From an uncultured Clostridia bacterium (GTDB lineage Bacteria; Bacillota; Clostridia; Christensenellales; Borkfalkiaceae), in assembly GCA_944354535.1 (NCBI GenBank), contig CALVPY010000019.1:1-44966 (forward strand): a stretch of DNA of 44,966 nucleotides, written 5' to 3'. Below the pieces are notes generated by a model. It was given only the letters and a program-made list of their open reading frames with translations. It searched no databases and had not been told where the DNA came from. Below, one piece after another: positions 5,216 through 43,284 of the stretch. The position numbers were made by a program, and so were the translations under genes. The stretch's first letter is position 1, and every line of letters begins with the position of its first letter.

Positions 5216-5226
5216 GATCTTCTCCA

Positions 5227-5244
5227 TTGTTGATTTTTCAACAA
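5227..5244 (-). promoter_or_regulatory. Palindromic operator at the marR transcription start
   Basis: TTGTTGA-N4-TCAACAA, a perfect 7+7 bp inverted repeat starting about 8 bases downstream of the -10 box. Size and position fit a MarR dimer site for autorepression. The pairing of site and protein is inferred from position only. Confidence 0.65.
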
Positions 5245-5251
5245 CTCGTCC

Positions 5252-5280
5252 ATTATACACAAGAATATTCTCCCTGTCAA
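5252..5280 (-). promoter_or_regulatory. Consensus sigma-A promoter of marR-degV
   Basis: On the minus strand, TTGACA (5275-5280) and TATAAT (5252-5257) with 17 bases between: both boxes are perfect. Such a strong promoter is consistent with control by repression. Confidence 0.85.
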
Positions 5281-5292
5281 TCAAATCGGCAC

Positions 5293-5318
5293 AAAAAAGC
5301 CCCATTTGAGGGGCAAAA
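5293..5318 (-). terminator. Intrinsic terminator of the LysR gene
   Basis: On the minus strand GCCCC-TCAAAT-GGGGC is followed by TTTTTTG. It ends just before the marR promoter and insulates the two units. Confidence 0.8.
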
Positions 5319-5406
5319 TCAAACAATTGGGAGCTCATGCCGTGCGGCTCTCGGGGAACAACTCCATATTGCGCATCGGAAAGCGGGCCGACCGATCCGT
5401 TACGTC

Positions 5407-6297: not shown

Positions 6298-6335
6298 AAT
6301 TACTCCTTATAGAGCAAGGCAAAACGCTGCCGCGC

Positions 6336-7625
6336 TCACTTGCCCACACAAAATTTGGAGAAGATCTCGCTGATGATCTCCTCGGTCGCAGTCTCCCCGC
6401 TCAAGAGCCCCAGCGCCACGTAGGCGCGCTTGATGTCCTCGGCATAGAGTTCGGCGGGAAGCCCCTCTGCGATCGCCTTCCGGGCTGTCCGAACGGCCTC
6501 TCTCGCCTCCCCGACTGCGCGGTAGTGCCTCTCTTCCATCAGAAAGATACTGTCGTTCTGCTTTCCGAAGCCCCGTTCAAAGATGAGCTCCTTGAGTGCT
6601 TGGATGCCCTCGCCCGTGACCGAAGAGACGTTGATATCGCAGTCCGTTTCGCGGCGCACGTCGCTCTTGCTTCCCACGATGATGAGCTCGGCGCCTTCGG
6701 GAAGCGCAGGCGGCAACTCTTCATCCTCGCGCACCCAAACGACGACGTCGGCGCGTTCCATTGCGGCACGCGCACGGCGGATGCCCTCTTTTTCGATCTC
6801 CCCTTCGCCCTCGCGAAGGCCTGCCGTGTCGGTAAGGCGGAACAGGACGCCGTGAAGTTCAATCGTTCCGTCTACGGCATCGCGCGTCGTTCCCGCTTCC
6901 GAAGAGACGATGGCACGGTCGTAGCCCAAGAGCGCATTGAGAAGCGAGCTCTTGCCCGCATTGGGCTTGCCGCAGAGCGCGACATTGACGCCCTCACGGA
7001 TGCGCTTGCCCGCGCGATACTGCATTAAAAGCGCCGACAGCGCGTCCTGAACGATCGCGAGCCGCTCTTCGATCTCCTCGCCCGTTACGGCGGAGAGATC
7101 CTCTTCCGGGTAATCAACGTCGGCATCGACGCGCGCAAGGCATTCTTTGAGAAGATCCTGAAGACGCTTCCCCTCTTTGGTAAGTTTCTCCCCGTAGAGA
7201 AGGTATCCGGCTTTTGCCTGCGCTTCCGAGCGCGCTGAGATCATCTCTCCGAGTCCCTCTGCTGCGGAGAGGGAAAGTTTTCCGTTCAGAAAGGCGCGGC
7301 GGGTAAACTCCCCCGCTTCCGCAGGACGTGCGCCAAGATCGAGCGTACGCTGATAGACCGCCCGTGCGATCTCCACCCCGCCGTGACAATGAAATTCGAC
7401 GGTATCCTCCCCCGTGAAGGAGTGCGGCGCGCGAAAGTAGACGCACATACCGCGATCGGAAAACGCACCGCAGTCGATATGCCCGGGATAGAGACGGTAC
7501 GGCTCAAATTCTCCCTTATAGGAGAACATTTTTTGGGCAAGCGGGAGCGCGCCCTCTCCGCTTACGCGGATCACGGCAATTCCTCCGACTCCCTGCGCGG
7601 TAGCGATAGCAGAAATGAGTTCCAT
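6336..7625 (-). CDS. mnmE: tRNA modification GTPase MnmE
   Basis: With MnmG, MnmE makes the 5-carboxymethylaminomethyl group on the wobble uridine of certain tRNAs. The N-terminal formyl-THF-binding domain is present (IATAQGVGGIAVIRVSG, HCHGGV, AGEFTRRAFLNGKLSL). Next comes a G domain inserted in the helical domain, with P-loop GKPNAGKSS, GTTRD, DTAG and SKSD, and the C-terminal CVGK carries the catalytic-site Cys. Start: ATG 7625 with AGGTG upstream; GTG 7634 overlaps that ribosome site. The usual partners mnmG, rsmG and jag are not adjacent, so here the gene is alone. Confidence 0.95.
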   Translation of the reverse strand: MELISAIATAQGVGGIAVIRVSGEGALPLAQKMFSYKGEFEPYRLYPGHIDCGAFSDRGMCVYFRAPHSFTGEDTVEFHCHGGVEIARAVYQRTLDLGARPAEAGEFTRRAFLNGKLSLSAAEGLGEMISARSEAQAKAGYLLYGEKLTKEGKRLQDLLKECLARVDADVDYPEEDLSAVTGEEIEERLAIVQDALSALLMQYRAGKRIREGVNVALCGKPNAGKSSLLNALLGYDRAIVSSEAGTTRDAVDGTIELHGVLFRLTDTAGLREGEGEIEKEGIRRARAAMERADVVVWVREDEELPPALPEGAELIIVGSKSDVRRETDCDINVSSVTGEGIQALKELIFERGFGKQNDSIFLMEERHYRAVGEAREAVRTARKAIAEGLPAELYAEDIKRAYVALGLLSGETATEEIISEIFSKFCVGK

Positions 7626-7647
7626 AACTTTCACCTATGAAAGCAGC

Positions 7648-7666
7648 GCAAGATCGCATATCTTGC
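7648..7666 (-). other. Hairpin in the mnmE leader
   Basis: GCAAGAT-N5-ATCTTGC (7 bp, perfect) between the predicted transcription start and the mnmE ATG. No U-run follows. Role unknown; it might affect leader stability or initiation. Confidence 0.4.
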
Positions 7667-7674
7667 ACACCTTG

Positions 7675-7721
7675 CTATAATCTGTGATTATGATTATAGC
7701 AGACAAAATCAAAAAAGTAAA
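7675..7721 (-). promoter_or_regulatory. Probable mnmE promoter with an overlapping dyad
   Basis: On the minus strand, TTTACT (7716-7721) and TATAAT (7693-7698) are 17 bases apart. The -10 box lies inside an inverted repeat, CTATAATC (7675-7682) and GATTATAG (7692-7699), which could be an operator or chance in AT-rich sequence. Confidence 0.5.
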
Positions 7722-7731
7722 ATGATTTTAC

Positions 7732-7766
7732 AAAAAAACAGCTTCCCGAGTGTAAGGGAAGCCGTT
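7732..7766 (-). terminator. Terminator of the ecf-truA-membrane protein operon
   Basis: On the minus strand GGCTTCCC-N8-GGGAAGCT is followed by a run of seven T. It lies directly after the stop of the membrane protein gene. Confidence 0.85.
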
Positions 7767-7771
7767 GATTT

Positions 7772-8704
7772 TTACTTTTTGTCGTCGCCGAACTCGGAGA
7801 AGGGATCGTCGTCGGAAGATGGATCGGACGAAGTTCCCGAAGAACTATCGCCCGGATTTCCGTAATTCCCGCCCGATGGCCCGCCAAAGCCTTCAAAGGG
7901 GTCGAGCCCGTTCTGCGTGTCGTTCCTGTTTTGACCGTAAGGGCCATTCTGTGAGCCATAAGGGCCATAGGGCGGCTGATAGCCGTTGCTGCGCATATAG
8001 GCCTGCGTGCGGCGGCGGATATAATCGTTATAGTCGACGGGAGCATTATTGCGAACGGCAAAGATCGTGATCCCGCGGAACGGGAAGATCGTCGAAAGAA
8101 AAGCAAGCAGGATGGGCCCGCGCGCATAGTACTTGCGGAAAAACGCAACGTACAAGACGCATAAGAAGACGATGGCGAAGAACCAGATGAGATAGGCGAC
8201 AAGATTGCCGTAATTATTGGTAGGCGTGATCCATGCGGGGAGACTGTCGTTGGGAACGCCGGAAAGTGCGCCCGTCTTCTCATCGATCTCAAGTGTCAGA
8301 TATTGCGGGAAGCAGGCAACAATGCTTATGATATACAGGAAGATCTCCAATGCGACATAGAGAAATTCCAAGATCGCCGCATACAGTCCGACGCGCTTCA
8401 TCTTCTGCCCGAAGAACTGCGTCTCGCCAGCAAGTTTGCCCGAGTAATAGGTATTGAAAAAAGGCAAAAACGCCATCCAGCGCTGTTTGAGCCCCTGCTT
8501 CTTGGCAAGTTTATTGAGCCCGATCCCACCGAAGACGAGCAGGATGAGATAGATCGCAAGCGCGCCCAAAGCGGAAAACAAGTAACAGCTCAAAACGACG
8601 TTCGAGTAGTCGTAGACATCATTGATCTCCGGCTTGACGATAAAGTTGATGATCCCCTGCATAAACATCAGCGGGACGCTAAAAAATTCAAAAAATTCCA
8701 TCAT
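7772..8704 (-). CDS. Unknown polytopic membrane protein with a Gly/Asn/Pro-rich tail
   Basis: No family recognised. The 310 aa chain shows about five hydrophobic segments (near residues 10-25, 40-62, 105-130, 165-190, 195-215). Between the second and third is a soluble stretch with a KQGLKQRWMAFLPFFNTYY motif, as in small membrane proteins of uncharacterised families. The last 80 residues are low complexity (repeated PYGPYG, NQN, then SSSDD) and acidic at the end. Start: GGGAGG just before a double ATG (8704/8701). It is 6 bases downstream of truA and is the last gene of the ecf operon before a terminator. Function cannot be assigned. Confidence 0.75.
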   Translation of the reverse strand: MMEFFEFFSVPLMFMQGIINFIVKPEINDVYDYSNVVLSCYLFSALGALAIYLILLVFGGIGLNKLAKKQGLKQRWMAFLPFFNTYYSGKLAGETQFFGQKMKRVGLYAAILEFLYVALEIFLYIISIVACFPQYLTLEIDEKTGALSGVPNDSLPAWITPTNNYGNLVAYLIWFFAIVFLCVLYVAFFRKYYARGPILLAFLSTIFPFRGITIFAVRNNAPVDYNDYIRRRTQAYMRSNGYQPPYGPYGSQNGPYGQNRNDTQNGLDPFEGFGGPSGGNYGNPGDSSSGTSSDPSSDDDPFSEFGDDKK

Positions 8705-12926: not shown

Positions 12927-14234
12927 TCAATCGTCCTTCTTGTTGCGCACCTGGATGCGGATGGGCGTTCCCGAAAAGTCGTACGCCTGACGGATGACGT
13001 TTTCGAGATACCGCGCATAGGAAAAGTGAAGGAGCGTCTCGTCGTTGACCATAAGCACGAAGAGCGGCGGCGCGACGGAGACCTCGGACGCATAGTAAAG
13101 CTTTAATCTCCTGCCCTGATAGGAAGGCGGTTCGGAAATGCGCATGGCGTCCATCAAAAGATCGTTGAGCGCCCCCGTCGGGATACGGAAATGCGCGTGA
13201 TCGTACGCCTCGCGGGCGAGCTTTAAGACTTTTTCCGCTCGCTGGCCCGTCTTTGCCGAAATGTACACGGACTTGAAGTAGTCCATGAATTTGAGATCTT
13301 CTTTGAGCTTTGCTTCAAACGTCTCGATGGTGTGGGTATCCTTCTCGACGAGATCCCACTTGTTCATGACGATGACGGAAGGCTTGCCCTCCTCGTGTAC
13401 CATGCCGATGATGCGCACGTCCTGCTCGGTGAGCCCCTCCACGGCATCCACGACGAGCACGGCAACATCTGCCCTTCTCACGGCGTCAAAGGCGCGGAGA
13501 ACGGAATAATATTCGACGTTGTCTTCGACGGAGCGCTTGCGGCGGATACCCGCCGTATCGATGATGACGTACTTTTCGCCGTCCCGCTCGAAGGGGGTAT
13601 CGATGGCGTCGCGCGTCGTACCCGCAATGTCGGTGACGATGGTGCGCTCCTCGCCCAAGATACGGTTGACGAGCGAACTCTTGCCCGCATTCGGTTTGCC
13701 GACGACGGCGATACGGAGGGCGTCGCTCTCCTCTTCCTCCCCTTCTTCGAAGGAAGAGACGGCCTCGTCCAGAACGTCGCCGATGCCGCGCGAATGCTCG
13801 GCGGAGATACCGAAGGGCTCCCCGAGGCCGAGCGAATAAAATTCAAAGAGCTTGTCCTGCGAGTATTCGTCGAGCTTGTTGACGACGAGGACGACGGGCT
13901 TGCGGCTGCGGCGGAGATAGTCCGCGACGTCGTAATCGGAGCTCGTCAGCCCCTCCCTGCCGTCTACAAAGAAGAGGATGACGTCGGCTGTCTCGACGGC
14001 GAGCTTCGCCTGAGAGGCGATCTGCTTCCACATGACGTCTTCGCTTTTTAATTCGATACCGCCCGTATCGACGAGCGTGAAGGGCTTGCCGCGCCACTCT
14101 GCCGAGGCGTAGATGCGATCGCGCGTGACGCCCGGGCGGTTCTCCGTGATGGAGAGCTTGCGCCCGATGACTTTATTAAAGAATGTGCTCTTGCCGACGT
14201 TCGGCCTGCCGACAATGGCAATGAGATGCTGCAT
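12927..14234 (-). CDS. der: Ribosome biogenesis GTPase Der (EngA)
   Basis: Double GTPase needed for 50S subunit assembly. Two G domains in tandem: GRPNVGKSTFFN near residue 8 with DTGG and NKLD, then GKPNAGKSSLVN near 183 with GTTRDAIDTPF, DTAGIRRKRSV and NKWD. A C-terminal KH-like domain follows (about 350-435) and ends in TPIRIQVRNKK. 435 aa is the normal length. Start ATG 14234 has AAAAGGAGGG upstream. It lies 34 bases after pyrR. Confidence 0.96.
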   Translation of the reverse strand: MQHLIAIVGRPNVGKSTFFNKVIGRKLSITENRPGVTRDRIYASAEWRGKPFTLVDTGGIELKSEDVMWKQIASQAKLAVETADVILFFVDGREGLTSSDYDVADYLRRSRKPVVLVVNKLDEYSQDKLFEFYSLGLGEPFGISAEHSRGIGDVLDEAVSSFEEGEEEESDALRIAVVGKPNAGKSSLVNRILGEERTIVTDIAGTTRDAIDTPFERDGEKYVIIDTAGIRRKRSVEDNVEYYSVLRAFDAVRRADVAVLVVDAVEGLTEQDVRIIGMVHEEGKPSVIVMNKWDLVEKDTHTIETFEAKLKEDLKFMDYFKSVYISAKTGQRAEKVLKLAREAYDHAHFRIPTGALNDLLMDAMRISEPPSYQGRRLKLYYASEVSVAPPLFVLMVNDETLLHFSYARYLENVIRQAYDFSGTPIRIQVRNKKDD

Positions 14235-32669: not shown

Positions 32670-35384
32670 TCACTTGTTCATGACAGGCAGAGCGTTGAGT
32701 TTGTTCAGCACCGCCGTAAACAGCGCCGTACCCTGCTCTCCCGCATAGGCGCACATCTCCGCGAGCGTCATATCGCGCGCAAGTTCGACCATCGGCCCGT
32801 CGAGCATCCCGGGGGAAATTTCGTTCAGAATGGCGCGCCCTTCCGGCATATCGAGGATGGAGCCGAATCTCGTCTCCATCGTGTAGCGCTGAAGCTTGAG
32901 ATCGGTCTTCGTTTCGTATTCCCACTCATAGGAGCCGCTGCCGACGGTGACGGTCTCGTGCTCGGGGATGACGACCTGAGCCGTGCAGTTTGCGGGCACG
33001 GTGACAAAGACGCGCAATTTGCCTTGCCTGCACTCATAACCCGAAACGACGGTGCCGTACACGCTCTCAAACTCCGCACGGACGCTCTCCAGCCCCTTCG
33101 TGAGCGTGGGCGCAAGCATCAAGGTGCGGTAGCCGGGCGACGTTTCGCGGATGCCCGCAACGACACGGTACAGCCAATCCCCCACCGAGCCGTAGGAATA
33201 GTGGTTGAAGGAGTTCATGGAAGGCTCGTGCAGCGAGCCGTCGGGCAGGATGCCGTCCCACCGCTCCCAGATGGTCGTCGCGCCCATCTTGACCGCATAC
33301 AGCCAGGAAGGGAAATCTTCGTGGAAGAGCAGCTTTTCGGCAAGGTCGTGCATCCCGTTTTCGGAGAGCGCGAAGAGAAGATAGGGCGTTCCCGCAAAGC
33401 CCGTGACGAGATGATTGTTGTGTTCGGAGAGGTTGGTCCTGAGCGTTTCGATGACGCGCGCTCTCTTTCCCTCGGGAATGAGCCCGAAGTAAAGCGTCAG
33501 AACGCACGCCGTCTGCGTTTCGGAGACGAGGCGGCCCGTCGCCGTAAAGTATTCCGTCCGGAACGCCGCCCTGATGGCTTCCGCACGGTCAGCATATTCC
33601 TTTGCGAGCGCCTCTTCGCCCAAAACTTTAGCAGCCTTTGCGACGATGCCCGTCGAAACATAATAGAACACGTTGGCGACGAGGTGCTTATCCGTCGAGC
33701 CCGTGCGCGTTGCAGGGTTGGAGCCGTCGAGCGCCAGCCAGTCGCCGTACTGATAGCCCGTCTGCCACAGTCCGTTTTCGCTGCATCTGGAATGGACGAA
33801 ATCCACCCACTTCTTCATGGCGGGGAATTGTGCGCGGAGCGCGTCTTTATCGCCGTAGACGAGATATTCGTTCCAGGGGATCATGGTCGCGCAGTCGCTC
33901 CAGAGCGCCGCGCCGTCGTTTCCATTGAGAATATCGGGGATGACGTGCGGCACGCTGCCGTCGGCGCGCTGCTCGCTCGCAAGATCTATGAGCCATTTCT
34001 TGAAGAAGGACGAGACGTCGTAATTGAACGCCGCCGTGCGGAAGAAGACGTTAGCATCACCCGTCCAGCCGAGTCGCTCGTCGCGCTGCGGGCAGTCGGT
34101 CGGAACATCGACGAAGTTGCTCCTCTGCCCCCAGACGATGTTCTGCCAAAGCCTGTTGACGCGGGGGTCGGAGCACTCGAATTTTCCCGTCCTCTTCATA
34201 TCGGAATGGAGCACCAGCCCCGTGACCGCCTCTTTGGGAAGTTCCTTCCCGACGATCTGAAGATAGCGGAAGCCATGGAAGGTGAAGTGCGGCGTCAGGA
34301 CCTGCTTCCCGCCCGCGAGGATGAACGTATCTTCGCTCGTCGCTTCGCGCAGGTTCTCGGTGTAGAAATTGCCCTCTTTATCAAGCACTTCCGCATGGCG
34401 CAGCGTGATGATCTCCCCGCGCTTTCCATCCACTTCCAAAGAGACAAAGCCCGTAAAGTTCTGCCCGAAATCGAGGACATATTCCCCCTTCGGCGTATGG
34501 AAAGCGGAGACGGGCTTTAAGACCTCGGTACAGCGGACGGGCTCGTTGATCTGTCCGACCACCTTGGCGGAGAAGGAGATGACTTCTACGGGAGATATTT
34601 TCTCTTCTTTCGTGAAGTCCTGTGTTTCGCCGAAGTAAAATTCGCTGTCTGCAATATAAGTAGAGACGGCTGAGAAGCTCTCGTCCGTTCCGAATACGTC
34701 CTCGGTGCCGTCCTCGTAAGTCAGGCGCACTTCCGCCATCCCCGCCGTACGGTCGCCATAGATGCCGCTCTGCTTCATAAAGCCGAGAGCGCCCGCATAC
34801 CAGCCCTTGCCGATGAGCATCGCAAAGTCGTTCTCCCCCTCTTTGACGAGGGAAGTGACGTCGTAAGTCTGATACTCGAGGGTGTGGGGATAGCTCGTCC
34901 AGAAGGGGGCAAACCAGCAGTCCCCCGCCTTCACTCCGCCGAAATAGCACTCATAGAGGCCGAGTGCAGTCGCATACAGCCGCGCCGCCCTGACGGGCTT
35001 TTTCGCCGTAAATTTCCCCTTGAGCGCATAGACGGGCGCAGGGACTTGCTTAGGCGCGATCATCTTTGCCGCAAAGGGTTCGGAGAGCTTATCCGTTTCA
35101 AAGACAAGGGATGCCTCTGCGCGTTCCCCGTGGTTGTCCTCCGCCGTAACGCGCACTTCATAGCGAGTGCGGGGCAAGAGCGCTTCCCCTTCGGCAAGAA
35201 TATAGGCGCACTCTCCCTCCCCTTTGGCGGACGAGACTTTTTTCCCGTCTTGCAGTACGCAAAGCTCGAAGGCTGCCTGCTTCGTATCCTTCTTTTCGGA
35301 ACGAAGTTTCCAGGAAAAATGCGGGCGTTCGGTGCGGCAAAACCCGCCCGCCGCCTCGACGACGCGAAGATCAAAAAGCTGCAT
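32670..35384 (-). CDS. Alpha-L-rhamnosidase, GH78 (copy 1)
   Basis: 904 aa, releases terminal alpha-L-rhamnose from pectin side chains, saponins or flavonoid rutinosides. N-terminal beta-sandwich domains (FCRTERPHFSWKLRSEKKD, KKPVRAARLYATALGLYECY) lead to the (alpha/alpha)6 barrel. The GH78 core VPTDCPQRDERLGWTGDANV lies near 430-446 and carries the catalytic Glu. C-terminal part: ATTIWERWDGILPDGS and MNSFNHYSYGSVGDWLYR. No signal peptide, so intracellular. AGGAGG lies 10 bases before the ATG. Divergent from AraC-1 across shared promoter element A. Confidence 0.95.
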   Translation of the reverse strand: MQLFDLRVVEAAGGFCRTERPHFSWKLRSEKKDTKQAAFELCVLQDGKKVSSAKGEGECAYILAEGEALLPRTRYEVRVTAEDNHGERAEASLVFETDKLSEPFAAKMIAPKQVPAPVYALKGKFTAKKPVRAARLYATALGLYECYFGGVKAGDCWFAPFWTSYPHTLEYQTYDVTSLVKEGENDFAMLIGKGWYAGALGFMKQSGIYGDRTAGMAEVRLTYEDGTEDVFGTDESFSAVSTYIADSEFYFGETQDFTKEEKISPVEVISFSAKVVGQINEPVRCTEVLKPVSAFHTPKGEYVLDFGQNFTGFVSLEVDGKRGEIITLRHAEVLDKEGNFYTENLREATSEDTFILAGGKQVLTPHFTFHGFRYLQIVGKELPKEAVTGLVLHSDMKRTGKFECSDPRVNRLWQNIVWGQRSNFVDVPTDCPQRDERLGWTGDANVFFRTAAFNYDVSSFFKKWLIDLASEQRADGSVPHVIPDILNGNDGAALWSDCATMIPWNEYLVYGDKDALRAQFPAMKKWVDFVHSRCSENGLWQTGYQYGDWLALDGSNPATRTGSTDKHLVANVFYYVSTGIVAKAAKVLGEEALAKEYADRAEAIRAAFRTEYFTATGRLVSETQTACVLTLYFGLIPEGKRARVIETLRTNLSEHNNHLVTGFAGTPYLLFALSENGMHDLAEKLLFHEDFPSWLYAVKMGATTIWERWDGILPDGSLHEPSMNSFNHYSYGSVGDWLYRVVAGIRETSPGYRTLMLAPTLTKGLESVRAEFESVYGTVVSGYECRQGKLRVFVTVPANCTAQVVIPEHETVTVGSGSYEWEYETKTDLKLQRYTMETRFGSILDMPEGRAILNEISPGMLDGPMVELARDMTLAEMCAYAGEQGTALFTAVLNKLNALPVMNK

Positions 35385-35408: not shown

Positions 35409-35467
35409 TTTATACTATCATATTTTTTCGGAAAAGTATTGCACGATTGTTGTTTTTATTGTATAAT
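35409..35467. promoter_or_regulatory. Divergent promoter element A (GH78-1 / AraC-1)
   Basis: Plus strand: TTGCAC (35439-35444), 17 bases, TATAAT (35462-35467), driving AraC-1. Minus strand: TACTTT (35433-35438), 18 bases, TATAAA (35409-35414), driving GH78. The two -35 boxes touch, forming AAAGTATTGCAC. The same arrangement recurs at 38218 and 43110. Confidence 0.7.
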
Positions 35468-35510
35468 TATTGCAAATTTATACTGCGGCTCACAGCGGAG
35501 GTGCTTTTGT

Positions 35511-36734
35511 ATGGAAACGATCGACCTTTTATCTGAACTTTCAAAACTGTTCAACGATCTCTCCGGCCTTCCCGTCGCCCTCTTCCGCGGGAAAGAGCAC
35601 ATAAAAGATTATTCCGTAGTACGGCTACCCCCCCCCTCGGCATCTCCGGCCCTGAGGCACTTTGAGACGCTGTACGAAAAGAACGAGCCCGTTTCCTACG
35701 AGATCGCGGACGACAAACTGCTCTTCGGCCTTGTCCGCGTGAAGGACGACGACCTGAGCCTTCTCGTCGGACCGGCGCGGCTCTCCTTCCTCGCGGAAAA
35801 CGAGGTCGCAAAGCTCCTTCTGAATTACGAGATCCCCAGGGAAGACGAACACGCCTTTCGCGACTTTTTGTTCTATACGCCCGTCTTTCAGTACCACTAC
35901 TGCATCCAGCTGCTGCTCTTTTTGCAGCTCTGCATCAACCGCACGCCCGTTTCCCAAAGAGAAGTCACCCTCGAAAAATCAGAGCGAGGCGAAGAGCTCG
36001 TACATCAAGCCTTCCGCGAAATGATCCGGCACAACGAACAGCTCGAATACGGCGAGGTGGAACGGCACACGACGCTCGAATTTGAACAGATGATGCTCGA
36101 CGCCGTCCGCACGGGCAATCTGAAGGGGCTTCAGGATGTCTTCGAGCACGTCCCCATCGGAAGGATCGGGATCGTTGCGCCCAACTCGCTGCGCCAGGCA
36201 AAGAACACCGCCATCGTCTCGATCACCCTCTCGACGCGGGCGGCGATCGCGGGCGGCATGAGCCAGGAGACCGCCTTCCAGCTTTCCGACATCGCCATCC
36301 AGAAAGTGGAAGCCTGCAATTCCATCAACGAAGCTAATCTCATCGTCTACCGCATGGTGATCAACCTCACGGAGCGGGTCGCGGCGATGAAAACGCCCAG
36401 ATCGGGAAACCCCATCGTAGACAGCGCGATCCGCTATATCGACGAGCACATCTGTTCCAAAGTCTCCATCGACGAACTTGCAGAATTTACGCACGCAAAC
36501 CGTTCCTACTTAAGCGCAAAATTCAAGAAGGAGACTGGGCTCTCGATCATGGAATATATCAACAAACGGAAGATCGAGGAAGCGGAACGGCTCCTGCGCT
36601 TTTCGGATAAGCCGCTCATCGCCATTGCGAGCTATCTCTCGTTCTCCTCGCAGAGCCATTTCCAGAACACGTTCAAAAAGATCACGGGTACGACGCCCAC
36701 GCAGTATCAAAGGCAGTGGAAGACAGAGCCCTGA
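35511..36734 (+). CDS. AraC family transcriptional regulator 1
   Basis: 407 aa. The C-terminal 100 residues hold the two AraC helix-turn-helix motifs: KVSIDELAEFTHANRSYLSA and IAIASYLSFSSQSHFQNTFK, ending in the TTPTQYQ family signature. The N-terminal sensor part is unlike the AraC cupin; it begins with SKLFNDLSGLPVALFRGKEH, shared with the second regulator at 38276. Start: GGAGG nine bases before ATG 35511. It probably senses a glycan breakdown product and controls element A and its siblings. A terminator follows directly. Confidence 0.92.
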   Translation: METIDLLSELSKLFNDLSGLPVALFRGKEHIKDYSVVRLPPPSASPALRHFETLYEKNEPVSYEIADDKLLFGLVRVKDDDLSLLVGPARLSFLAENEVAKLLLNYEIPREDEHAFRDFLFYTPVFQYHYCIQLLLFLQLCINRTPVSQREVTLEKSERGEELVHQAFREMIRHNEQLEYGEVERHTTLEFEQMMLDAVRTGNLKGLQDVFEHVPIGRIGIVAPNSLRQAKNTAIVSITLSTRAAIAGGMSQETAFQLSDIAIQKVEACNSINEANLIVYRMVINLTERVAAMKTPRSGNPIVDSAIRYIDEHICSKVSIDELAEFTHANRSYLSAKFKKETGLSIMEYINKRKIEEAERLLRFSDKPLIAIASYLSFSSQSHFQNTFKKITGTTPTQYQRQWKTEP

Positions 36735-36765
36735 AAAAAGGCGGCCGCAGACAGGCCGCCTTTTC
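36735..36765 (+). terminator. Terminator of AraC-1
   Basis: GGCGGCC (36740-36746) pairs with GGCCGCC (36754-36760), extended by A-T pairs, followed by TTTT. Confidence 0.85.
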
Positions 36766-36799
36766 CGTTCATGCAAGTCCCGTGAAAAAAGTCATGCTC

Positions 36800-36826
36800 A
36801 CATAAACCGCAGGCAGCTTCCTGCGG
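36800..36826 (-). terminator. Probable terminator of the GH1 gene
   Basis: CCGCAGG (36807-36813) pairs with CCTGCGG (36820-36826); on minus it is followed by TTTATG, a short U-run. Confidence 0.5.
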
Positions 36827-36834
36827 CCGCGTTT

Positions 36835-38163
36835 TTATCCGCCGCAGCGGTGAGCTGCGATGTAGTCGCGATAGAAATAGGCGCTCTTTTTCCATGCCGT
36901 TTCAAACGTCCTGAAATTCGTGCGGATAAGGCCGTATTTTACCATCGTCCCGGCGCTCCATTCGATGTTGTCCATCAGGCTCCACGCATAGTATCCCGCG
37001 ATGTTGAGCCCCTCGTCGTTCGCCTTTTCCATCCAATGCAAAAAGCCTTTCAAATATTCGATGCGGCCGTTGTCGCGCACGGTTTTCCCGAGGCGCGGTT
37101 CAAACACATAGTTCCCTTTGCCGTTTTCGGTGATGAGGATGGGGATGCGCAGATCGTACATTCCGCGCAGCATTTTCACAACGTCGTAGACGGCTTTGTG
37201 GTAAACCCCGCCTGCGGCTTCCTGGATATTTCCGCCCTGCAGAAGTCTTTTTTTTGCCGACTTGTCCTTGTCGACAAGCACACGGTTATACACATTGAGG
37301 CCGAAGAAATCAAGCTTCTGCCGCATGAGAGAATAGTCGCGCTCTCCGATCTCCATGAGCGTCCCCTCCCGCGAGAGCGCAGACAGGATATAGTCGGAAT
37401 ATCCCTTCCCGAGAACGGGATCGGTGTAGAACTTCCAATTGCGCTCGTCCTCGTCGCGGACGGCCTCCATGTTCTTCTCCGTCGGGATCTTAGGATAGCG
37501 CTTCCAAACGTCGATGACGATGCCGATCTTGGAAGAGGGCGAAGCCGAGGCGCGGAAGGCCTCCACCGCCCTGCCGTGCGCGACGAGCAAGTTGTGGCGC
37601 GCCTGATTGCCGAGCTTTTCGTCTCTATGCCCCGGAGCGAAGCTCCCCTTTGCATAGCCCACATAGGTTGCGATGGGCTCGTTGACGGTCGCAAAATACG
37701 GAACGATATCCGAATAGAGGCGGAACATCTTTTCCGAATACTCGCCGAACCACTCGATGCAGTCGCGGTTCGCCCAGCCGCCCCTCTCTTCCAGACATTG
37801 CGGCAGATCCCAATGATAGAGCGTGACGTTCGGCTTGATCCCCGCTTCAAGAAGGCTTTCAAATACGCGGCGGTAATAGCCGACACCCTTTTCATTGAGC
37901 TTTCCCGTCCCTTCGGGAAGTACGCGCGACCAGGAGACGGACATACGATAACTGTTTACGCCGAGCGCTTTGAGGTTTTCAAGGTCGCGGGGAAAGCGGT
38001 GATAACTGTCGCACGCGGTCGGGAAGCGGTTCGCGTTCATCACCTTTTTCTCCGCTGCAAACTTATCCCAAAGGCTCGGGCTCCTGCCGTCATCCGCCGC
38101 CCCGCCTTCAATCTGGGCGGCCGCCGTGGAAACGCCCCACAAAAAATCGTTCGGATAAGACAT
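36835..38163 (-). CDS. Glycoside hydrolase family 1 (beta-glucosidase type)
   Basis: 442 aa, full-length single-domain GH1. N-terminal FLWGVSTAAAQIEGG is the family signature. The acid/base Glu is in FATVNEPIA near 160 and the nucleophile Glu in PILITENGKGNY near 343. GYYAWSLMDNIEWSAGTMVKYG is also conserved except that the usual FEW is IEW. Start AAGGAG before ATG 38163. No signal peptide. The residues after the catalytic Glu do not show a phosphate-binding motif clearly, so plain beta-glycosidase is preferred over 6-phospho-beta-glucosidase. Divergent from AraC-2. Confidence 0.94.
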   Translation of the reverse strand: MSYPNDFLWGVSTAAAQIEGGAADDGRSPSLWDKFAAEKKVMNANRFPTACDSYHRFPRDLENLKALGVNSYRMSVSWSRVLPEGTGKLNEKGVGYYRRVFESLLEAGIKPNVTLYHWDLPQCLEERGGWANRDCIEWFGEYSEKMFRLYSDIVPYFATVNEPIATYVGYAKGSFAPGHRDEKLGNQARHNLLVAHGRAVEAFRASASPSSKIGIVIDVWKRYPKIPTEKNMEAVRDEDERNWKFYTDPVLGKGYSDYILSALSREGTLMEIGERDYSLMRQKLDFFGLNVYNRVLVDKDKSAKKRLLQGGNIQEAAGGVYHKAVYDVVKMLRGMYDLRIPILITENGKGNYVFEPRLGKTVRDNGRIEYLKGFLHWMEKANDEGLNIAGYYAWSLMDNIEWSAGTMVKYGLIRTNFRTFETAWKKSAYFYRDYIAAHRCGG

Positions 38164-38195
38164 ACACGCTCTCCTTATCGCCGTTCATCGGTTTG

Positions 38196-38252
38196 ATTAT
38201 AGCATGAAACTTTGGCAAAAGTCTTGCATTTGTATTTTATTTCAGATATAAT
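38196..38252. promoter_or_regulatory. Divergent promoter element B (GH1 / AraC-2)
   Basis: Plus strand: TTGCAT (38224-38229), 17 bases, TATAAT (38247-38252), driving AraC-2. Minus strand: GACTTT (38218-38223), 16 bases, TATAAT (38196-38201), driving GH1. The -35 boxes touch as AAAGTCTTGCAT. Confidence 0.75.
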
Positions 38253-38275
38253 TGTTTCAATATCGGAGGCTCAAC

Positions 38276-39481
38276 ATGAAAAACATCGACTTTGAATACC
38301 TCTGCACCGTCATCGGCAATCTTGCGGGCGTACCCATCCGCCTCTTCCGCGGAAAAGAACAGATCTTCTATCATGCGGTCGTATCGCTCCCCAAAGATCC
38401 CATTCTGCCCTATCGGGAAGACATCCTTTCCATCAACTCACACATCGGGTATTATATCACGCCCGAATTCTATTATTACGGCATCGTGCGGAGCGGAGAT
38501 CTGACCATAGCCATCGGACCCTCCATGCAGATCGGGAGCGACGATCAGACGCTCAAAGAACTCGCTTTCCGCTGCGACGTTCCGCAGGCGGACATGGGAG
38601 AATTCCTCACGGGGATGAAGAGCATCCTTCCCCTGCCGCTCGACAGCATCCTTCAGATGCTCTGCGCCATGAACTACGTCATGAATGAGGAAAAGCTCGG
38701 CCTTGAGGATCTGCGCATCTATGAGACCGAGCAGCGGGAACTGAAGGAACAGACGGAAGAGTTGTTTGCAGAGCATCAGCTCGACACCGAACTTGACGCG
38801 GGACCGCAGGAGCTGCACAATACGCTCGCCCTCGAGCAAACCATTCTCAACTTCGTGCGGCGCGGAGACACCTCCGCCTTAAGAGACTGGCTGAAAAAGA
38901 TGCCCGCCGTCCGCCCCGGGATCCTTGCAAAGGATGCGCTTCGCCAGCTCAAAAACACCTTTATCGTCACCGCAACGCTTGTCTCACGCTCGGCGATCAG
39001 AGGCGGGATGGAGGTCAACGAAGCGCTTACGCTGAGCGACGCCTATATCCAGAAATGCGAACTTCTAAATAGCTTCGAATGCATCACGAATCTTCAATAC
39101 TGCATGATCTTCGACTACACCGAGCGTGTAGAGCGCCTTCGCCTCGGAAGAATGCCCTCGAAATTCGTGCTGGACGTCACGAACTATGTAAGGCGCCATC
39201 TTTCGGAGCCCATCAGCACGGAAAAGATCGCAGAATCGATGTTTCTGAGCCGATCGCGCCTCTCCGTCAAATTTCGGGAGGAGACGGGCGTGACGCTCAC
39301 CGATTTCATTCTGCGCGAAAAGACGGAGGAGGCAAAACGGCTTTTGCGCTATACCGAAAAGTCCGCCGTCGCCATCTCGAATTATCTGGGTTTTTCCTCC
39401 CAAAGCCACTTTTCGCGCGTCTTCAAGAAGTATGCGGGGTGCCAACCCAACGAGTATCGGAAACGATATGACAGGCCATGA
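38276..39481 (+). CDS. AraC family transcriptional regulator 2
   Basis: 401 aa, paralogue of the regulator at 35511. Shared N-terminal pattern: IGNLAGVPIRLFRGKEQI here and LSGLPVALFRGKEHI there. The C-terminal double helix-turn-helix is intact (PISTEKIAESMFLSRSRLSV, AVAISNYLGFSSQSHFSRVF), ending in CQPNEYRKR. The middle part has a helical segment with QLKNTFIVTATLVSRSAIRGG, closely like AKNTAIVSITLSTRAAIAGG in copy 1. GGAGG lies six bases before ATG 38276. It probably has a related effector and the same or an overlapping operator. Confidence 0.92.
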   Translation: MKNIDFEYLCTVIGNLAGVPIRLFRGKEQIFYHAVVSLPKDPILPYREDILSINSHIGYYITPEFYYYGIVRSGDLTIAIGPSMQIGSDDQTLKELAFRCDVPQADMGEFLTGMKSILPLPLDSILQMLCAMNYVMNEEKLGLEDLRIYETEQRELKEQTEELFAEHQLDTELDAGPQELHNTLALEQTILNFVRRGDTSALRDWLKKMPAVRPGILAKDALRQLKNTFIVTATLVSRSAIRGGMEVNEALTLSDAYIQKCELLNSFECITNLQYCMIFDYTERVERLRLGRMPSKFVLDVTNYVRRHLSEPISTEKIAESMFLSRSRLSVKFREETGVTLTDFILREKTEEAKRLLRYTEKSAVAISNYLGFSSQSHFSRVFKKYAGCQPNEYRKRYDRP

Positions 39482-39499
39482 TTTATTCCGTATGAGACC

Positions 39500-39531
39500 G
39501 AGCGGCCCGCATTCCTGCGGGCCGCTCTTTT
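39500..39531. terminator. Terminator between convergent AraC-2 and GH78-2
   Basis: GAGCGGCCCGCA (39500-39511) pairs perfectly with TGCGGGCCGCTC (39516-39527) with a TTCC loop, followed by TTTT on plus. Confidence 0.85.
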
Positions 39532-39560
39532 CATAAGGGGATGGATAGAAGATAGGATGG

Positions 39561-42089
39561 TCAGAAGGTATATTCCCCCGCCGAAAGGGTCTCCTTCCTG
39601 CCGTCGGGGAGCACGAGTTGCGCCGTCGTATTGGCGGGCACGCGGACGGTAAATTTCCAACCGTTCCCGCTCTTTTCCCAGCCGCAGGAGATCTCGCCGT
39701 AAATGCTCAGATAGTCCGTCTTCGCAAAGGTAAAATGTCCGCCCGGGCGGGGCGCGATCGTAAACTTGTTCTCGCCCGCCACCCGGATGCCGCACATCTC
39801 GGAAAACACCCACTCGCACAGCGCGCCTTTCGAATAGTGGTCGCGCGAATCGGTACCTTCCCAGCCTTCCCAGATGGTATTGGCGCCCGCCTTGACCATA
39901 TACAACCAGCCGGGCATCTCCTCGCTCTCGAGAAGGCGGTAAGCATATTCAATGTCCATCTCCGCGAGCACATAGAGGATAAACGGCGTCGACAAGAAGC
40001 CGGTACCAAGCCGCCAGCGATAGTTTTCGAGCGCCTTCAGAAGGCGGTCTTTTGCATATTTTTCCTGCTGCTTGTCGAGAAGGCGCAGATAGAGCGGCCG
40101 CACGAGCTTTGCCTGACGGTCGGTGTCGAGCGAGAACTTCTTGCCCGATACAAGCTTCCGATAGCCCGTCCTTGCCCTTTCCGCATACTTCTTGTAGTAT
40201 GCCTCATCCTCTGTCTTCCCGAGGGCGGCAGCGATTTGAGCCATCCGCTCCAGAAGCAGCACGACGTACGCCGTCGACTCCTCGGGATGAGGGCTGACAA
40301 AATCGGAGATCGCAAAGGGATGCACATCGGCGGGCTCCGACCATTCGCCGTAAGATTGGCCGTAGTTGCAGATATATTTGCGGTACTTAAGCCCGACGCC
40401 CGTCGGCAAAGAAGTGAGATAATGCTTCCCGAGCGTCTTGATCTTGAACTTCGCATACGCCTGCATGGAGGCATAGCTCTCTTTCAGGATGCGCTCATCG
40501 CCGTACATCTTCCAGAGAAAATACGGGATGAACACGCCCGCATCCGACCAGCCCGCCGAACCGTCCATCGCGTCCATGTAACGGTCGACGCCGCCGGGCG
40601 GCGTGATCTGACGATAGCAGCCGTTCTTTCTCTGTCCGTCCTGCATGTCGTTGATATACTTGCGCGCCATCGCGTCGTAATCGAAGAAATAGCTTGCCGT
40701 CTTCACAAAGATCTGCGCATCCCCCGTCCAGCCGTGGCGCTCGCGCGTCGGGCAGTCGGTGGGAATATCCGCATGGTTGTTCTTTGCCGACCAGCGGGTA
40801 TTTTCGACGAACTGATTGAGGAGCGCATTGGAGCTTTCGAACGCGACCGTGCTCTCCATGGAAGAATAGACGGCGATCGCGGTGAAGTCCTCCTCCTTCC
40901 AGGGCGCATCCCCTTCGACGAGCGCATATTGGAACCCGAAGATCGCGAACTTGGTCTTATATTCGTTCACGCCCTCGCGGCAGGTATATTCGATCTGCTG
41001 CAAGGGGGTCTTGCGCTCCTTTTTGACGCATTGGATGTTCTTCTGCGTGAATTCGCCCTCTTCGTCAAACATCTCGCCGAAGCGGAGCCTGAGTTTCTGC
41101 CCCGCCTTCGCATTGAGGCGGAATTCGATATACCCTGCGATATTCTGCCCGAAGTCGAGCACCTTCTTCCCCGAAGGCGTCGTGATGACCTGAACGGCTT
41201 TGAGCCGCTCGTGCTCTTCCAAAAGTACGTTATTTGAAGCGGTCGGAAGCACGGGGCAGGACGTAACTTTGGCTTTCCCCGAAAAGCTCGGCGTTTTGCG
41301 GGCGTCGCAAATTTCGCCGTCCTTATTGTCGGCAAAGCGGATGGGCCCGTCGTTCGACCACGCCCAGTTCCCGTCCGAAATGATCTTCGTCACCTTTCCG
41401 CTCTGATCGAAGAGTTCAAGCTGCACAAAGAGCTTTGTTTCGATGCCGTACTCATTCAGAAGCCCCCACGCGCCGCAGCTGCCGCGGTACCAGCCGTCTG
41501 CCAGCTCGCAGGTGAGGACATTTTCCCCGTTATTGAGAAGCGCCGTCACATCCGCCGTCTGATATTGGATGCGCTTTTTATAATCGGTATGCCCCGGCGC
41601 GAGGCAGAAACTTCCCGCCTTCTGCCCGTTGAGCTTCACTTCGTATATGCCGCAGGCGGTCGAGTACAGCCGCGCCTTGACGATGTTTTCCGCCGAAAAC
41701 CTGCGCAGGAAGCAGTCGACGGGATAGCGCTTGGAAGCATCCACCGTATAATTCCCCGCGATCCACTTGGCGGAAAAATCGGAGGGCGACAAGAGTCCCA
41801 TCTCGAAGGAGGCTTCTTCCGACCACTCCCCTTCCTTCCCCTCTTCATCCCAGAGTTTGACCTTCCACACAACGCGCTGACGGGAGACGAGCTGTTCGGG
41901 GTACACCGCCCGCATCGAGGAAGAGGCGACCTTCCCGCTGTCCCACACCGTCTTGCCTCCGCTTTCGGCAGCGATGCGGTAGGCAGTCTGCGTCTTTCCG
42001 CCCTCACAGTTCCAGAACAGGCGGGGGTTTTGGATGTCGATGCCGATGGGATCGAACAAATATTCCGTCTTGAGTCTTACTGCTTTCAT
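39561..42089 (-). CDS. Alpha-L-rhamnosidase, GH78 (copy 2)
   Basis: 842 aa. N-terminal Ig-like region (DPIGIDIQNPRLFWNCEGG), then FLRRFSAENIVKARLYSTAC, the typical first GH78 sandwich. The catalytic core is DIPTDCPTRERHGWTGDAQI near 445, with the Glu in RERHGW. C-terminal part: GANTIWEGWEGTDSRDHYSK and SKGALCEWVFSEMCGIRV. It differs clearly from copy 1 throughout, so it is not a recent duplicate. Start ATG 42089 with GAGGAG six bases upstream; the longer frame reaches into the esterase gene. Second gene of the element C operon. No signal peptide. Confidence 0.94.
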   Translation of the reverse strand: MKAVRLKTEYLFDPIGIDIQNPRLFWNCEGGKTQTAYRIAAESGGKTVWDSGKVASSSMRAVYPEQLVSRQRVVWKVKLWDEEGKEGEWSEEASFEMGLLSPSDFSAKWIAGNYTVDASKRYPVDCFLRRFSAENIVKARLYSTACGIYEVKLNGQKAGSFCLAPGHTDYKKRIQYQTADVTALLNNGENVLTCELADGWYRGSCGAWGLLNEYGIETKLFVQLELFDQSGKVTKIISDGNWAWSNDGPIRFADNKDGEICDARKTPSFSGKAKVTSCPVLPTASNNVLLEEHERLKAVQVITTPSGKKVLDFGQNIAGYIEFRLNAKAGQKLRLRFGEMFDEEGEFTQKNIQCVKKERKTPLQQIEYTCREGVNEYKTKFAIFGFQYALVEGDAPWKEEDFTAIAVYSSMESTVAFESSNALLNQFVENTRWSAKNNHADIPTDCPTRERHGWTGDAQIFVKTASYFFDYDAMARKYINDMQDGQRKNGCYRQITPPGGVDRYMDAMDGSAGWSDAGVFIPYFLWKMYGDERILKESYASMQAYAKFKIKTLGKHYLTSLPTGVGLKYRKYICNYGQSYGEWSEPADVHPFAISDFVSPHPEESTAYVVLLLERMAQIAAALGKTEDEAYYKKYAERARTGYRKLVSGKKFSLDTDRQAKLVRPLYLRLLDKQQEKYAKDRLLKALENYRWRLGTGFLSTPFILYVLAEMDIEYAYRLLESEEMPGWLYMVKAGANTIWEGWEGTDSRDHYSKGALCEWVFSEMCGIRVAGENKFTIAPRPGGHFTFAKTDYLSIYGEISCGWEKSGNGWKFTVRVPANTTAQLVLPDGRKETLSAGEYTF

Positions 42090-42153
42090 GTTTTTCTCCT
42101 CTTCTATACTGTTCCCTTTCCGTATTGTTTGCTGCCGCTTTGGCAGATGTTTT

Positions 42154-43032
42154 TCAGCGGACGATCTCATCAAAGAACGCTTTCATATTTTGAAGCGTCT
42201 GATGTGCTTCGGGGATCTGCGGGATGGACGCCCAGGCATGCAGCTGTTTGTGCCCGATCTCCAGCTTGCACTTCACTCCCGCCGTCTTTGCCTTTTCATA
42301 GAGAAGTTTGCTGTCGTCGAACAGCACTTCGCTGTCCGACACCGACAAAAAGAGAGGCGGAAAGCCGCGGAATTCGCCATATATGGGCGAAATATTCGGG
42401 TCTTTCAAGAAGTCCTCTCCCGCGCCCGCAGGCACAAGTTTTTCAAGGAGCTTCCCGCCCGAAGGATCGCGCTTCAGCATATAATCCGTTTTGATATTTG
42501 CCTTGTGCGAGGGAAGATCCATGCCGATGCCCGCAACGGGCGAAAACGCCGCGACCGCCAAAGGCAGCGGAAGATGGGCGCGCATCGCCCGCTGTACGGT
42601 GCCGATGGCAAGCGCCCCGCCCGCGCTCCCGCCCAGAACAATGAGGCGCGGATACTTTTTGATGACCGCGCGGTACACTTCGAAGCAGTCCTCAAAGGCC
42701 GCAGGCAGCTTGTGTTCGGGTGCAAGCCGGTAATCGCAGGCAAGCACGTTGTAGCCGAGCTTATCGCAAAGATAGAAGGAAAGGGCGCGCGTCTCCTTCG
42801 CAGAGCCCGTCGTAAACCCGCCGCCGTGGATGTTGAGCACATAAATATCCCCGTTCCCCTGCTTTTCGATCAATTCGCACGGAACAGAAAGCCCCGCATC
42901 CCCGACCGTAACGCCCTTCGGGGGCTTGGGAAGCGGCCGCGCGGCATTTTGACGGCGCTCCTCCTCGGTGTCCTCGATGATGGGCATATGGCGGAACATG
43001 ACATTGAGAAAATGCGTCACAAAACTTGCCAT
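42154..43032 (-). CDS. Alpha/beta hydrolase, hormone-sensitive-lipase (HSL) family esterase
   Basis: 292 aa, cytoplasmic esterase. Oxyanion-hole motif LNIHGGGFTTGS near 65, nucleophile Ser in VLGGSAGGALA near 132, catalytic Asp in SVSDSEVLFDD near 228, and the His in KQLHAWAS near 258: the complete HSL/BD-FAE set. It probably removes acyl groups from imported rhamnosides. Start ATG 43032 has GGGGGG upstream. It is 64 bases upstream of GH78-2 and is driven from element C. Confidence 0.9.
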   Translation of the reverse strand: MASFVTHFLNVMFRHMPIIEDTEEERRQNAARPLPKPPKGVTVGDAGLSVPCELIEKQGNGDIYVLNIHGGGFTTGSAKETRALSFYLCDKLGYNVLACDYRLAPEHKLPAAFEDCFEVYRAVIKKYPRLIVLGGSAGGALAIGTVQRAMRAHLPLPLAVAAFSPVAGIGMDLPSHKANIKTDYMLKRDPSGGKLLEKLVPAGAGEDFLKDPNISPIYGEFRGFPPLFLSVSDSEVLFDDSKLLYEKAKTAGVKCKLEIGHKQLHAWASIPQIPEAHQTLQNMKAFFDEIVR

Positions 43033-43087
43033 CTTATCCCCCCTTTTGTTGTCTCAAAATCATAACGCCGTCTTTCGTTTTGAAACA

Positions 43088-43144
43088 ATTATATCAAATT
43101 CATCTCGGGAAAGTCTTGCACGATCGTTTTATTTCGAGCATAAT
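43088..43144. promoter_or_regulatory. Divergent promoter element C (esterase-GH78-2 operon)
   Basis: Minus strand: GACTTT (43110-43115), 16 bases, TATAAT (43088-43093), driving the esterase. Plus strand: TTGCAC (43116-43121), 17 bases, CATAAT (43139-43144), but no gene follows on plus. The outer arms are also symmetric: AAACAATTAT at 43084-43093 and ATAATTGTTT at 43140-43149. Confidence 0.7.
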
Positions 43145-43284
43145 TGTTTTATCTTTTTCCAAATTCCTCACACTGACGACGCGTGACCGCTCTTTTTCCG
43201 CAAAAAGAGAACACCTCCAAAGGAGAGATCCTTTCAAGAGGTGAAGAGCCCGGAAGCGCAGCCGGGAAGAATCAAAAATTTTTT
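43145..43284. other. Gap downstream of orphan plus promoter
   Basis: No ORF with a ribosome site on plus. It contains small hairpins: CTCTTTTT/AAAAAGAG near 43190-43210, the PIG-L terminator hairpin, and CCCGG-N8-CCGGG near 43249-43266 followed by an A/T-rich tract. A short untranslated RNA from the plus promoter is possible. Confidence 0.4.
43202..43243 (-). terminator. Terminator of the nagB-PIG-L operon
   Basis: On minus, CACCTC ... GAGGTG (43212-43243) encloses AAAGGA-TCTC-TCCTTT and is followed by TTCTCTTTTT. Confidence 0.7.

What the first reader, a model, noticed from the sequence alone, without database searches (positions are those of the whole stretch)
35409..43149. Three copies of one divergent-promoter element tie two AraC regulators to three glycan operons
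At 35433-35444, 38218-38229 and 43110-43121 the sequence AAAGTMTTGCAY occurs on the plus strand. In each case TTGCAY is the -35 box of a plus promoter (17-base spacer to TATAAT/CATAAT) and the adjoining AAAGTM is, on minus, a GACTTT/TACTTT -35 box (16-18 bases to TATAAT/TATAAA). Two opposite -35 boxes that touch leave one short site through which one protein could control both directions. Elements A and B lie between an AraC gene and a glycosidase gene, and C precedes the esterase-GH78 operon. The two AraC proteins are paralogues, so cross-regulation is likely. I know of no description of this element.
Basis: partly seen in the sequence, partly recalled or inferred. Interest (0 to 1): 0.72.

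Follow-up and report, generated by a model that had tools for sequence, protein, structure and literature searches.

The report
AraC operator beside glycan-degrading genes
The three repeated sites are probable landing pads for AraC-type gene switches, each a pair of matching half-sites 20 bases apart beside sugar-degrading genes; the layout is of an ordinary kind, but relatives show which two amino acids of the switch appear to read it.

Summary
They are one end of a 46-bp element: two direct-repeat half-sites 20 bp apart, ending against the -35 box of a glycan gene. The bare 12-mer is not enriched in 60 other genus genomes (37 matches, 41 control matches). The 46-bp element lies directly upstream of the AraC2 orthologue in 9 of 9 genomes that have one, and upstream of 69 of 80 wider clostridial relatives (61 of 72 without training records). 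The two half-sites change together (z 6.95). AraC residues 327 and 328, at the start of the first recognition helix, track the half-site bases better than any other of 352 columns. So the adjacent AraC is very probably the binder. B and C carry AraC2-type half-sites, A the AraC1 type, which argues against easy cross-regulation. Activation of glycan genes and self-repression of araC are inferred from layout. Known kind of operator; I found no description of this one.

The parts
35433..35478 (-). Element A: whole 46-bp operator, written in the glycan-gene direction
   Evidence: R1 model E 1.2e-8 in own genome (training site)
35441..35455 (-). A: half-site next to the glycan promoter (columns 24-38)
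   Evidence: direct repeat at offset 20
35461..35475 (-). A: distal half-site (columns 4-18)
35439..35444 (+). A: -35 of araC1 promoter, TTGCAC
35462..35467 (+). A: -10 of araC1 promoter, TATAAT, inside the distal half-site
35435..35440 (-). A: -35 of GH78 promoter, AATACT (weak)
35409..35414 (-). A: possible -10 of GH78 promoter, TATAAA (spacer 20; alternative TAGTAT at 17)
   Evidence: sequence
38218..38263 (-). Element B: whole 46-bp operator
   Evidence: R1 model E 6.2e-10 (training site)
38226..38240 (-). B: proximal half-site
38246..38260 (-). B: distal half-site
38224..38229 (+). B: -35 of araC2 promoter, TTGCAT
38247..38252 (+). B: -10 of araC2 promoter, TATAAT
38220..38225 (-). B: -35 of GH1 promoter, AAGACT (weak)
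38196..38201 (-). B: -10 of GH1 promoter, TATAAT, spacer 18
   Evidence: sequence
43110..43155 (-). Element C: whole 46-bp operator, no araC gene beside it
   Evidence: R1 model E 1.3e-11 (training site)
43118..43132 (-). C: proximal half-site
43138..43152 (-). C: distal half-site
43112..43117 (-). C: -35 of esterase-GH78 promoter, AAGACT (weak)
43088..43093 (-). C: -10 of esterase-GH78 promoter, TATAAT, spacer 18
   Evidence: sequence
35511..36734 (+). AraC1, 407 aa, HTH_18; predicted binder of A
38276..39481 (+). AraC2, 401 aa, HTH_18; predicted binder of B, C and the sites on other contigs
32670..35384 (-). GH78 alpha-L-rhamnosidase, target of A
   Evidence: Pfam
36835..38163 (-). GH1 glycosidase, target of B
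   Evidence: Pfam
42154..43032 (-). Abhydrolase_3 esterase, first gene after C
   Evidence: Pfam
39561..42173 (-). GH78 alpha-L-rhamnosidase, second gene after C
   Evidence: Pfam

Best explanation
Each element is an operator of the neighbouring AraC-type regulator. Two half-sites in direct repeat, 20 bp apart, take two copies of the HTH domain (shown by sequence and covariation; binding itself not shown). The proximal half-site abuts the weak -35 (AAGACT/AATACT) of a glycan promoter, the position from which AraC proteins activate (inferred). At A and B the same 46 bp contain the araC promoter from its -35 to its -10, so a bound regulator should shut its own gene, and the overlapping -35 boxes should keep polymerase from serving both directions at once (inferred). 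C is the same operator without an araC gene; AraC2, encoded 3.6 kb away, should activate the esterase-GH78 pair there in trans. AraC2 should also act at GH3 and GH31 genes and one surface-protein-like gene on other contigs. A belongs to AraC1.
For: Six exact own-genome sites align over 46 bp with a best self-match at offset 20. A model from 10 sites finds 6 places in the own genome at E up to 1, one of them not in the training set. Genus: 8 of 103 genomes have R1 matches at E 1e-5 or better and all 8 have an AraC2 orthologue; 9 have one, and in each the element lies just upstream (8 by R1; G157 by weight matrix only, score 23.3). Wider: 69 of 80 relatives exceed the highest of 800 shuffles within 250 bp upstream, all 69 in the same orientation. 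Half-site identity at offset 20 is 0.641 against 0.205-0.397 at other offsets in 52 distant sites, with concerted change z 6.95 and 0 of 3000 permutations. Residues 327 (r 0.610) and 328 (0.607) rank first and second of 352 columns, next 0.358; in 50 distant members alone 0.645 and 0.496, next 0.389. They start the helix 326-337 in the model, the HTH1 recognition helix. Arg328 goes with A at bases 8 and 28 in 19 of 19; Pro-Tyr with T in 36 and 34 of 37. Divergent genes: GH3 47, MFS_2 17, GH43 3 of 67.
Against: No binding, transcription start or expression data. 11 of 80 relatives had no site above threshold. Five other columns (0.358 to 0.286) exceed the largest of 300 label permutations (0.284), so shared ancestry is not fully removed. 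Concerted change among the 21 close sites is modest (p 0.007 uncorrected over 13 offsets; offset 23 gives 0.021); in the distant set offsets 15 and 25 reach 0.011 and 0.023. GH78 promoter of A has no good -10 at spacer 17-18. Four genus genomes without an AraC2 orthologue have weak R1 matches, E 3e-4 to 9e-4. The family of AraC paralogues is large (7 with E 5e-23 or better in this genome), so other paralogues could bind some sites. Activation versus repression is not tested.
Confidence: 0.83

Rival explanations
1. The element is only a pair of back-to-back promoters with touching -35 boxes; the shared 12-mer is promoter sequence, and any regulator binds elsewhere.
For: At A and B both hexamer pairs are good and well spaced, and TATAAT is kept at 11 of 11 araC-side sites.
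Against: The direct repeat with concerted change and its tracking of AraC residues 327 and 328 need a protein reading both half-sites. TTGCAY is kept at sites without an araC gene, where the -10 is not.
Confidence: 0.05
2. AraC binds the operator but as a repressor of both directions, released by a sugar.
For: The proximal half-site ends in and overlaps the glycan -35 region; no tool here separates activation from repression.
Against: In Caldicellulosiruptor bescii all four single-component AraC regulators have tandem-repeat sites upstream of mapped promoters, suggesting activation (PMC8579813, passages). The glycan -35 is weak, which fits an activated promoter.
Confidence: 0.1
3. AraC1 and AraC2 both act at all three elements.
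For: A, B and C share the frame and are all found by one model; the proteins are paralogues.
Against: Half-site bases that follow AraC identity differ: GCA/ACA at A and GCT/GCA at the G034 AraC1 site, GAA/AAA at B, AAA/AAA at C. But one AraC2 orthologue (G055, Pro327) also has GCA/GCA, so the boundary is not sharp.
Confidence: 0.2

Closest known systems
AraC-family carbohydrate regulators with direct-repeat sites (AraC-type RhaR of Bacillales, Bacteroides, Enterococcus; Rodionova et al. 2013, PMC3870299, passages seen)
   Same: AraC-family regulator, direct repeat about two helical turns apart, beside sugar genes (rhamnose there, alpha-L-rhamnosidases at A and C here).
   Different: 21-bp periodicity there, 20 here; the passages do not describe overlap of the repeat with the regulator's own promoter.
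Single-component AraC regulators of Caldicellulosiruptor bescii (PMC8579813, passages seen)
   Same: Clostridial-type sugar regulators, tandem-repeat sites upstream of promoter elements, predicted activators.
   Different: Sites there compared with mapped starts; I saw no motif letters to compare with mine.
araC/araBAD-type divergent control of Escherichia coli (recalled)
   Same: Regulator and target transcribed apart from a shared region; regulator limits its own promoter while activating the other.
   Different: araC control uses a looping pair of distant half-sites (recalled); here one compact 46-bp element.
TIGR04094 YSIRK-adjacent regulators such as EbrB (PMC3669262, passages seen)
   Same: Best full-length NCBIfam match of AraC1, AraC2 and the C12 AraC.
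   Different: Scores 155.9, 163.1, 158.3 lie below the cut-off of 200; EbrB acts on a surface protein, and its authors found no obvious binding site.

Membership tests
AraC/XylS family regulator | C-terminal double HTH domain (HTH_18) | tested here: met
   AraC1 76.7 bits, AraC2 74 bits, cut-off 33.6; model of AraC2 matches solved AraC-type DNA-binding domains
TIGR04094 YSIRK-adjacent regulator | score at or above the curated cut-off of 200 | tested here: not met
   155.9 and 163.1 bits
TIGR04094 YSIRK-adjacent regulator | neighbouring gene with a YSIRK-type signal peptide | not tested
   neighbours of A and B are GH78 and GH1; signal peptides not examined
AraC-type direct-repeat operator | two half-sites in direct repeat about two helical turns apart | tested here: met
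   offset 20, identity 0.641 in 52 distant sites, concerted change z 6.95
AraC-type direct-repeat operator | site bound by the adjacent AraC protein | tested here: inconclusive
   coevolution with residues 327 and 328 is indirect; binding needs an experiment
AraC-type direct-repeat operator | transcription of the target is activated | not testable with these tools
   position against the -35 only
Divergent regulator-target promoter with shared operator | regulator gene and its promoter on the far side of the operator | tested here: met
   A and B: araC gene and TATAAT present
Divergent regulator-target promoter with shared operator (element C) | regulator gene and its promoter on the far side of the operator | tested here: not met
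   no plausible plus gene after C, CATAAT

The most novel reading that the evidence does not exclude
A subfamily of AraC regulators spread through gut Clostridia uses one compact bidirectional switch: a 46-bp direct repeat that is at once operator, complete araC promoter and -35 region of a glycoside hydrolase 3 or sugar-transporter gene, with overlapping -35 boxes that exclude one another. Its specificity is set by residues 327 and 328 of the first recognition helix, which read bases 6-8 and 26-28 (Ser-Arg reads AAA, Pro-Tyr reads NTT or NAT), so the regulon of each species can be read from two amino acids.
Probability: 0.5. Interest if true: 0.5.

Novelty: new member of a known kind. Interest (0 to 1): 0.36.

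Why it matters
It gives a predicted DNA site and regulon to a large, unstudied group of AraC regulators in uncultured gut Clostridia, and a testable two-residue rule for which bases they read. That would let sugar-degradation regulons be called from sequence alone in genomes where no genetics exists. It also shows that three similar sites near two paralogous regulators need not mean cross-control.

Tried and rejected
The bare 12-mer as a regulon marker: rejected, 37 matches against 41 control matches in 60 other genus genomes. The pattern with a fixed -10 in the family (11 of 101 genomes) mixes unrelated hits with true sites; the 34-column score separates them. A 21-bp offset first guessed by eye was wrong; the data give 20. 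The C12:43053 site beside an AraC and an MFS_2 transporter has the 12-mer but is not found by R1 at E up to 1; I treat it as the site of that other AraC and left it out of the 21-site table, with its G034 counterpart. I also left out of that table the sites of G112, G140, G147, G010, G012, G034:C7, G158:C71, G042, G170 and G006. Upstream regions of the other AraC paralogues: the C28 one shows the same layout (TTTGCAATACAAA then TATAAT), C9, C1 and C30 do not clearly. The N-terminal sensor domain of AraC2 has no Pfam match at E up to 0.001 and Foldseek's significant matches are explained by the DNA-binding domain; the ligand stays unknown. Model confidence is moderate (pLDDT 78.7, pTM 0.43). 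Sequence-letter search of papers: 31 papers hold one of four short words, the 10 listed are unrelated by title, the other 21 were not seen.
Full report
Observation. The three 12-mers are exact, all on plus, unique in the window, and 0 of 100 shuffles had three. Promoter boxes are as described. Extending the comparison, A, B, C and the three further exact matches in the genome (C10:21378, C12:37179, C12:43053) align over 46 bp. In the direction of the glycan gene the consensus of ten sites is AAGATAAAACAATTATACCnnAAATAAAACAAAnATGCAAGACTTT. The 12-mer is only the last twelve columns.

Anatomy. Pooled self-comparison of the six sites peaks at an offset of 20. Columns 4-18 and 24-38 are two half-sites in direct repeat. 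The glycan -35 is best placed at columns 39-44; in 69 relatives a -10 with 5 or 6 of 6 matches follows at spacer 17 (46) or 18 (15) in 61, against 7.5% in shuffled tails. The araC -35 is the reverse complement of columns 35-40 and its -10 that of columns 12-17, spacer 17. So the araC promoter lies wholly inside the operator and the two -35 boxes overlap by two bases.

Genes. A: GH78 / AraC1. B: GH1 / AraC2. C: esterase then GH78, nothing credible on plus. Other contigs: GH3 (C10), GH31 (C12:37179), MFS_2 plus GH2 opposite a third AraC (C12:43053), and a 404-aa protein without a family match (C51). AraC1 and AraC2 are 34% identical; seven AraC proteins match AraC2 at E 5e-23 or better in this genome.

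Is the 12-mer the unit? No. In 61 genus genomes, 26 have it; the 60 others hold 37 matches against 41 for the reversed control (summed by hand). Those with a good score over the other 34 columns lie beside GH3, GH43, esterase, MFS_2 or AraC genes; the rest do not resemble the operator.

Model search. R1, built from ten sites without structure, finds six places in the own genome at E up to 1: five training sites and C51:4584, which has one mismatch in the 12-mer. In 103 genus genomes 12 have a match at E 0.001 or better; eight have one at 1e-5 or better, four lie between 3e-4 and 9e-4. AraC2 has orthologues (54-80% identity) in eight other genomes; the eight genomes with strong R1 sites are among these nine. 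In eight the R1 site lies just upstream of the orthologue; in the ninth, G157, a weight matrix finds it at score 23.3. Five of the eight genomes contributed training sites, three (G158, G163, G166) did not. The AraC1 orthologue is found in G034 only, with its own site upstream. GH3 genes carry the site in nine genomes, Abhydrolase_3 genes in three, GH43 genes in three. In 251 family genomes 18 match at 0.001, in 6 of 18 genera.

Divergent promoter or not. In a hand-chosen table of 21 sites the plus -10 is TATAAT at 11 of 11 with an araC gene on that side and 1 of 10 without (Fisher 3.4e-5; orthologous sites are not independent). So the bidirectional reading holds for A and B and not for C.

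Breadth. A scan with the AraC2 orthologue alignment kept the best 80 of 162 relatives in the genome collection, named as uncultured Clostridia, Candidatus Gallimonas, Candidatus Borkfalkia, Oscillospiraceae, Lachnospiraceae and others. In the 250 bp upstream of each, 69 of 80 exceed the best of 800 shuffles; all 69 have the same orientation, and 68 end 10-42 bp before the start codon, one at 81. Eight of the 80 are the contigs of training sites, so 61 of 72 are independent. Of 67 divergent genes scanned, 47 match GH3, 17 MFS_2 and 3 GH43.

Who binds. In 52 sites beside more distant AraC relatives (one a training site) the halves are 0.641 identical at offset 20 and 0.205-0.397 at other offsets. 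They change together: z 6.95, 0 of 3000 permutations, carried by columns 6, 7 and 8 with 26, 27 and 28. Correlating these bases with each AraC alignment column, after removing distance in residues 1-295, ranks residues 327 (0.610) and 328 (0.607) first of 352, next 0.358 (68 of 70 proteins; L140 and L141 dropped because the HTH was missing or cut). In 50 distant members 0.645 and 0.496, next 0.389. Label permutation gives at most 0.284 in 300 draws, and five further columns exceed this, so kinship is not wholly removed. Arg328 goes with A at both bases 8 and 28 in 19 of 19. Pro327-Tyr328 goes with T at base 8 in 36 of 37 and at base 28 in 34 of 37. In the predicted structure helix 326-337 is the first recognition helix (recalled: the matching helix of MarA and AraC contacts DNA).

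Which AraC at which element. B has GAA/AAA and C AAA/AAA at the tracking bases, as expected for AraC2 (Ser-Arg). A has GCA/ACA, and the G034 AraC1 site GCT/GCA. With only two AraC1 sequences this is a lead. One AraC2 orthologue with Pro327-Arg328 (G055) has GCA/GCA, which shows the rule is about residues, not just clades, and also that the types are close.

Mechanism. Shown: presence, spacing, conservation, concerted change, coevolution with the recognition helix. Inferred: binding by two HTH domains, activation of the glycan gene from beside a weak -35, repression of araC by covering its promoter, exclusion between the promoters. The activation step leans on family knowledge: in C. bescii AraC-type sites lie upstream of mapped promoter elements and the authors infer activation (PMC8579813, passages).

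Known or new. Direct repeats of about 21 bp are the reported form for AraC-type rhamnose regulators in Bacillales, Bacteroides and Enterococcus (PMC3870299, passages). This is thus a known kind of operator. I found no description of this motif or this regulator group in ten library searches, which cover open-licence papers only. TIGR04094 is the nearest named family but its cut-off is not reached. In the paper on EbrB, a member, no obvious binding site was found (PMC3669262, passages).

Noticed in passing
L004 (G000:C28) 6057-8510, plus: A GH3 protein whose Pfam C-terminal domain (32-281) precedes its N-terminal domain (579-804), divergent from another AraC of this group with a similar promoter layout.
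   Followed up: partly
L093 (G000:C51) 4685-5899, plus: The operator precedes a 404-aa protein with an N-terminal hydrophobic stretch and GGLVG-type repeats; no Pfam, NCBIfam or PDB match. It may be a surface protein under AraC2.
   Followed up: partly
L056, L057, L058 (G140, G112, G147): Three genomes of another genus have a similar 46-bp stretch upstream of a gene starting MRTREESLN (264-265 aa; the L056 one has no Pfam match); no AraC gene was seen divergent from it.
   Followed up: no
L098 (G158:C55) 6089-6134: Upstream of an Abhydrolase_3 gene both half-sites carry GCGAC instead of AAAAC, while the AraC2 site of the same genome carries AAAAC twice; another paralogue may bind it.
   Followed up: no
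L002 (G000:C12) 14020-14065 and L055 (G034) 1579-1624: A third AraC (62% identical between the two genomes) with the same layout opposite an MFS_2 transporter, but with other half-site bases; not found by the AraC2 model in the own genome.
   Followed up: partly
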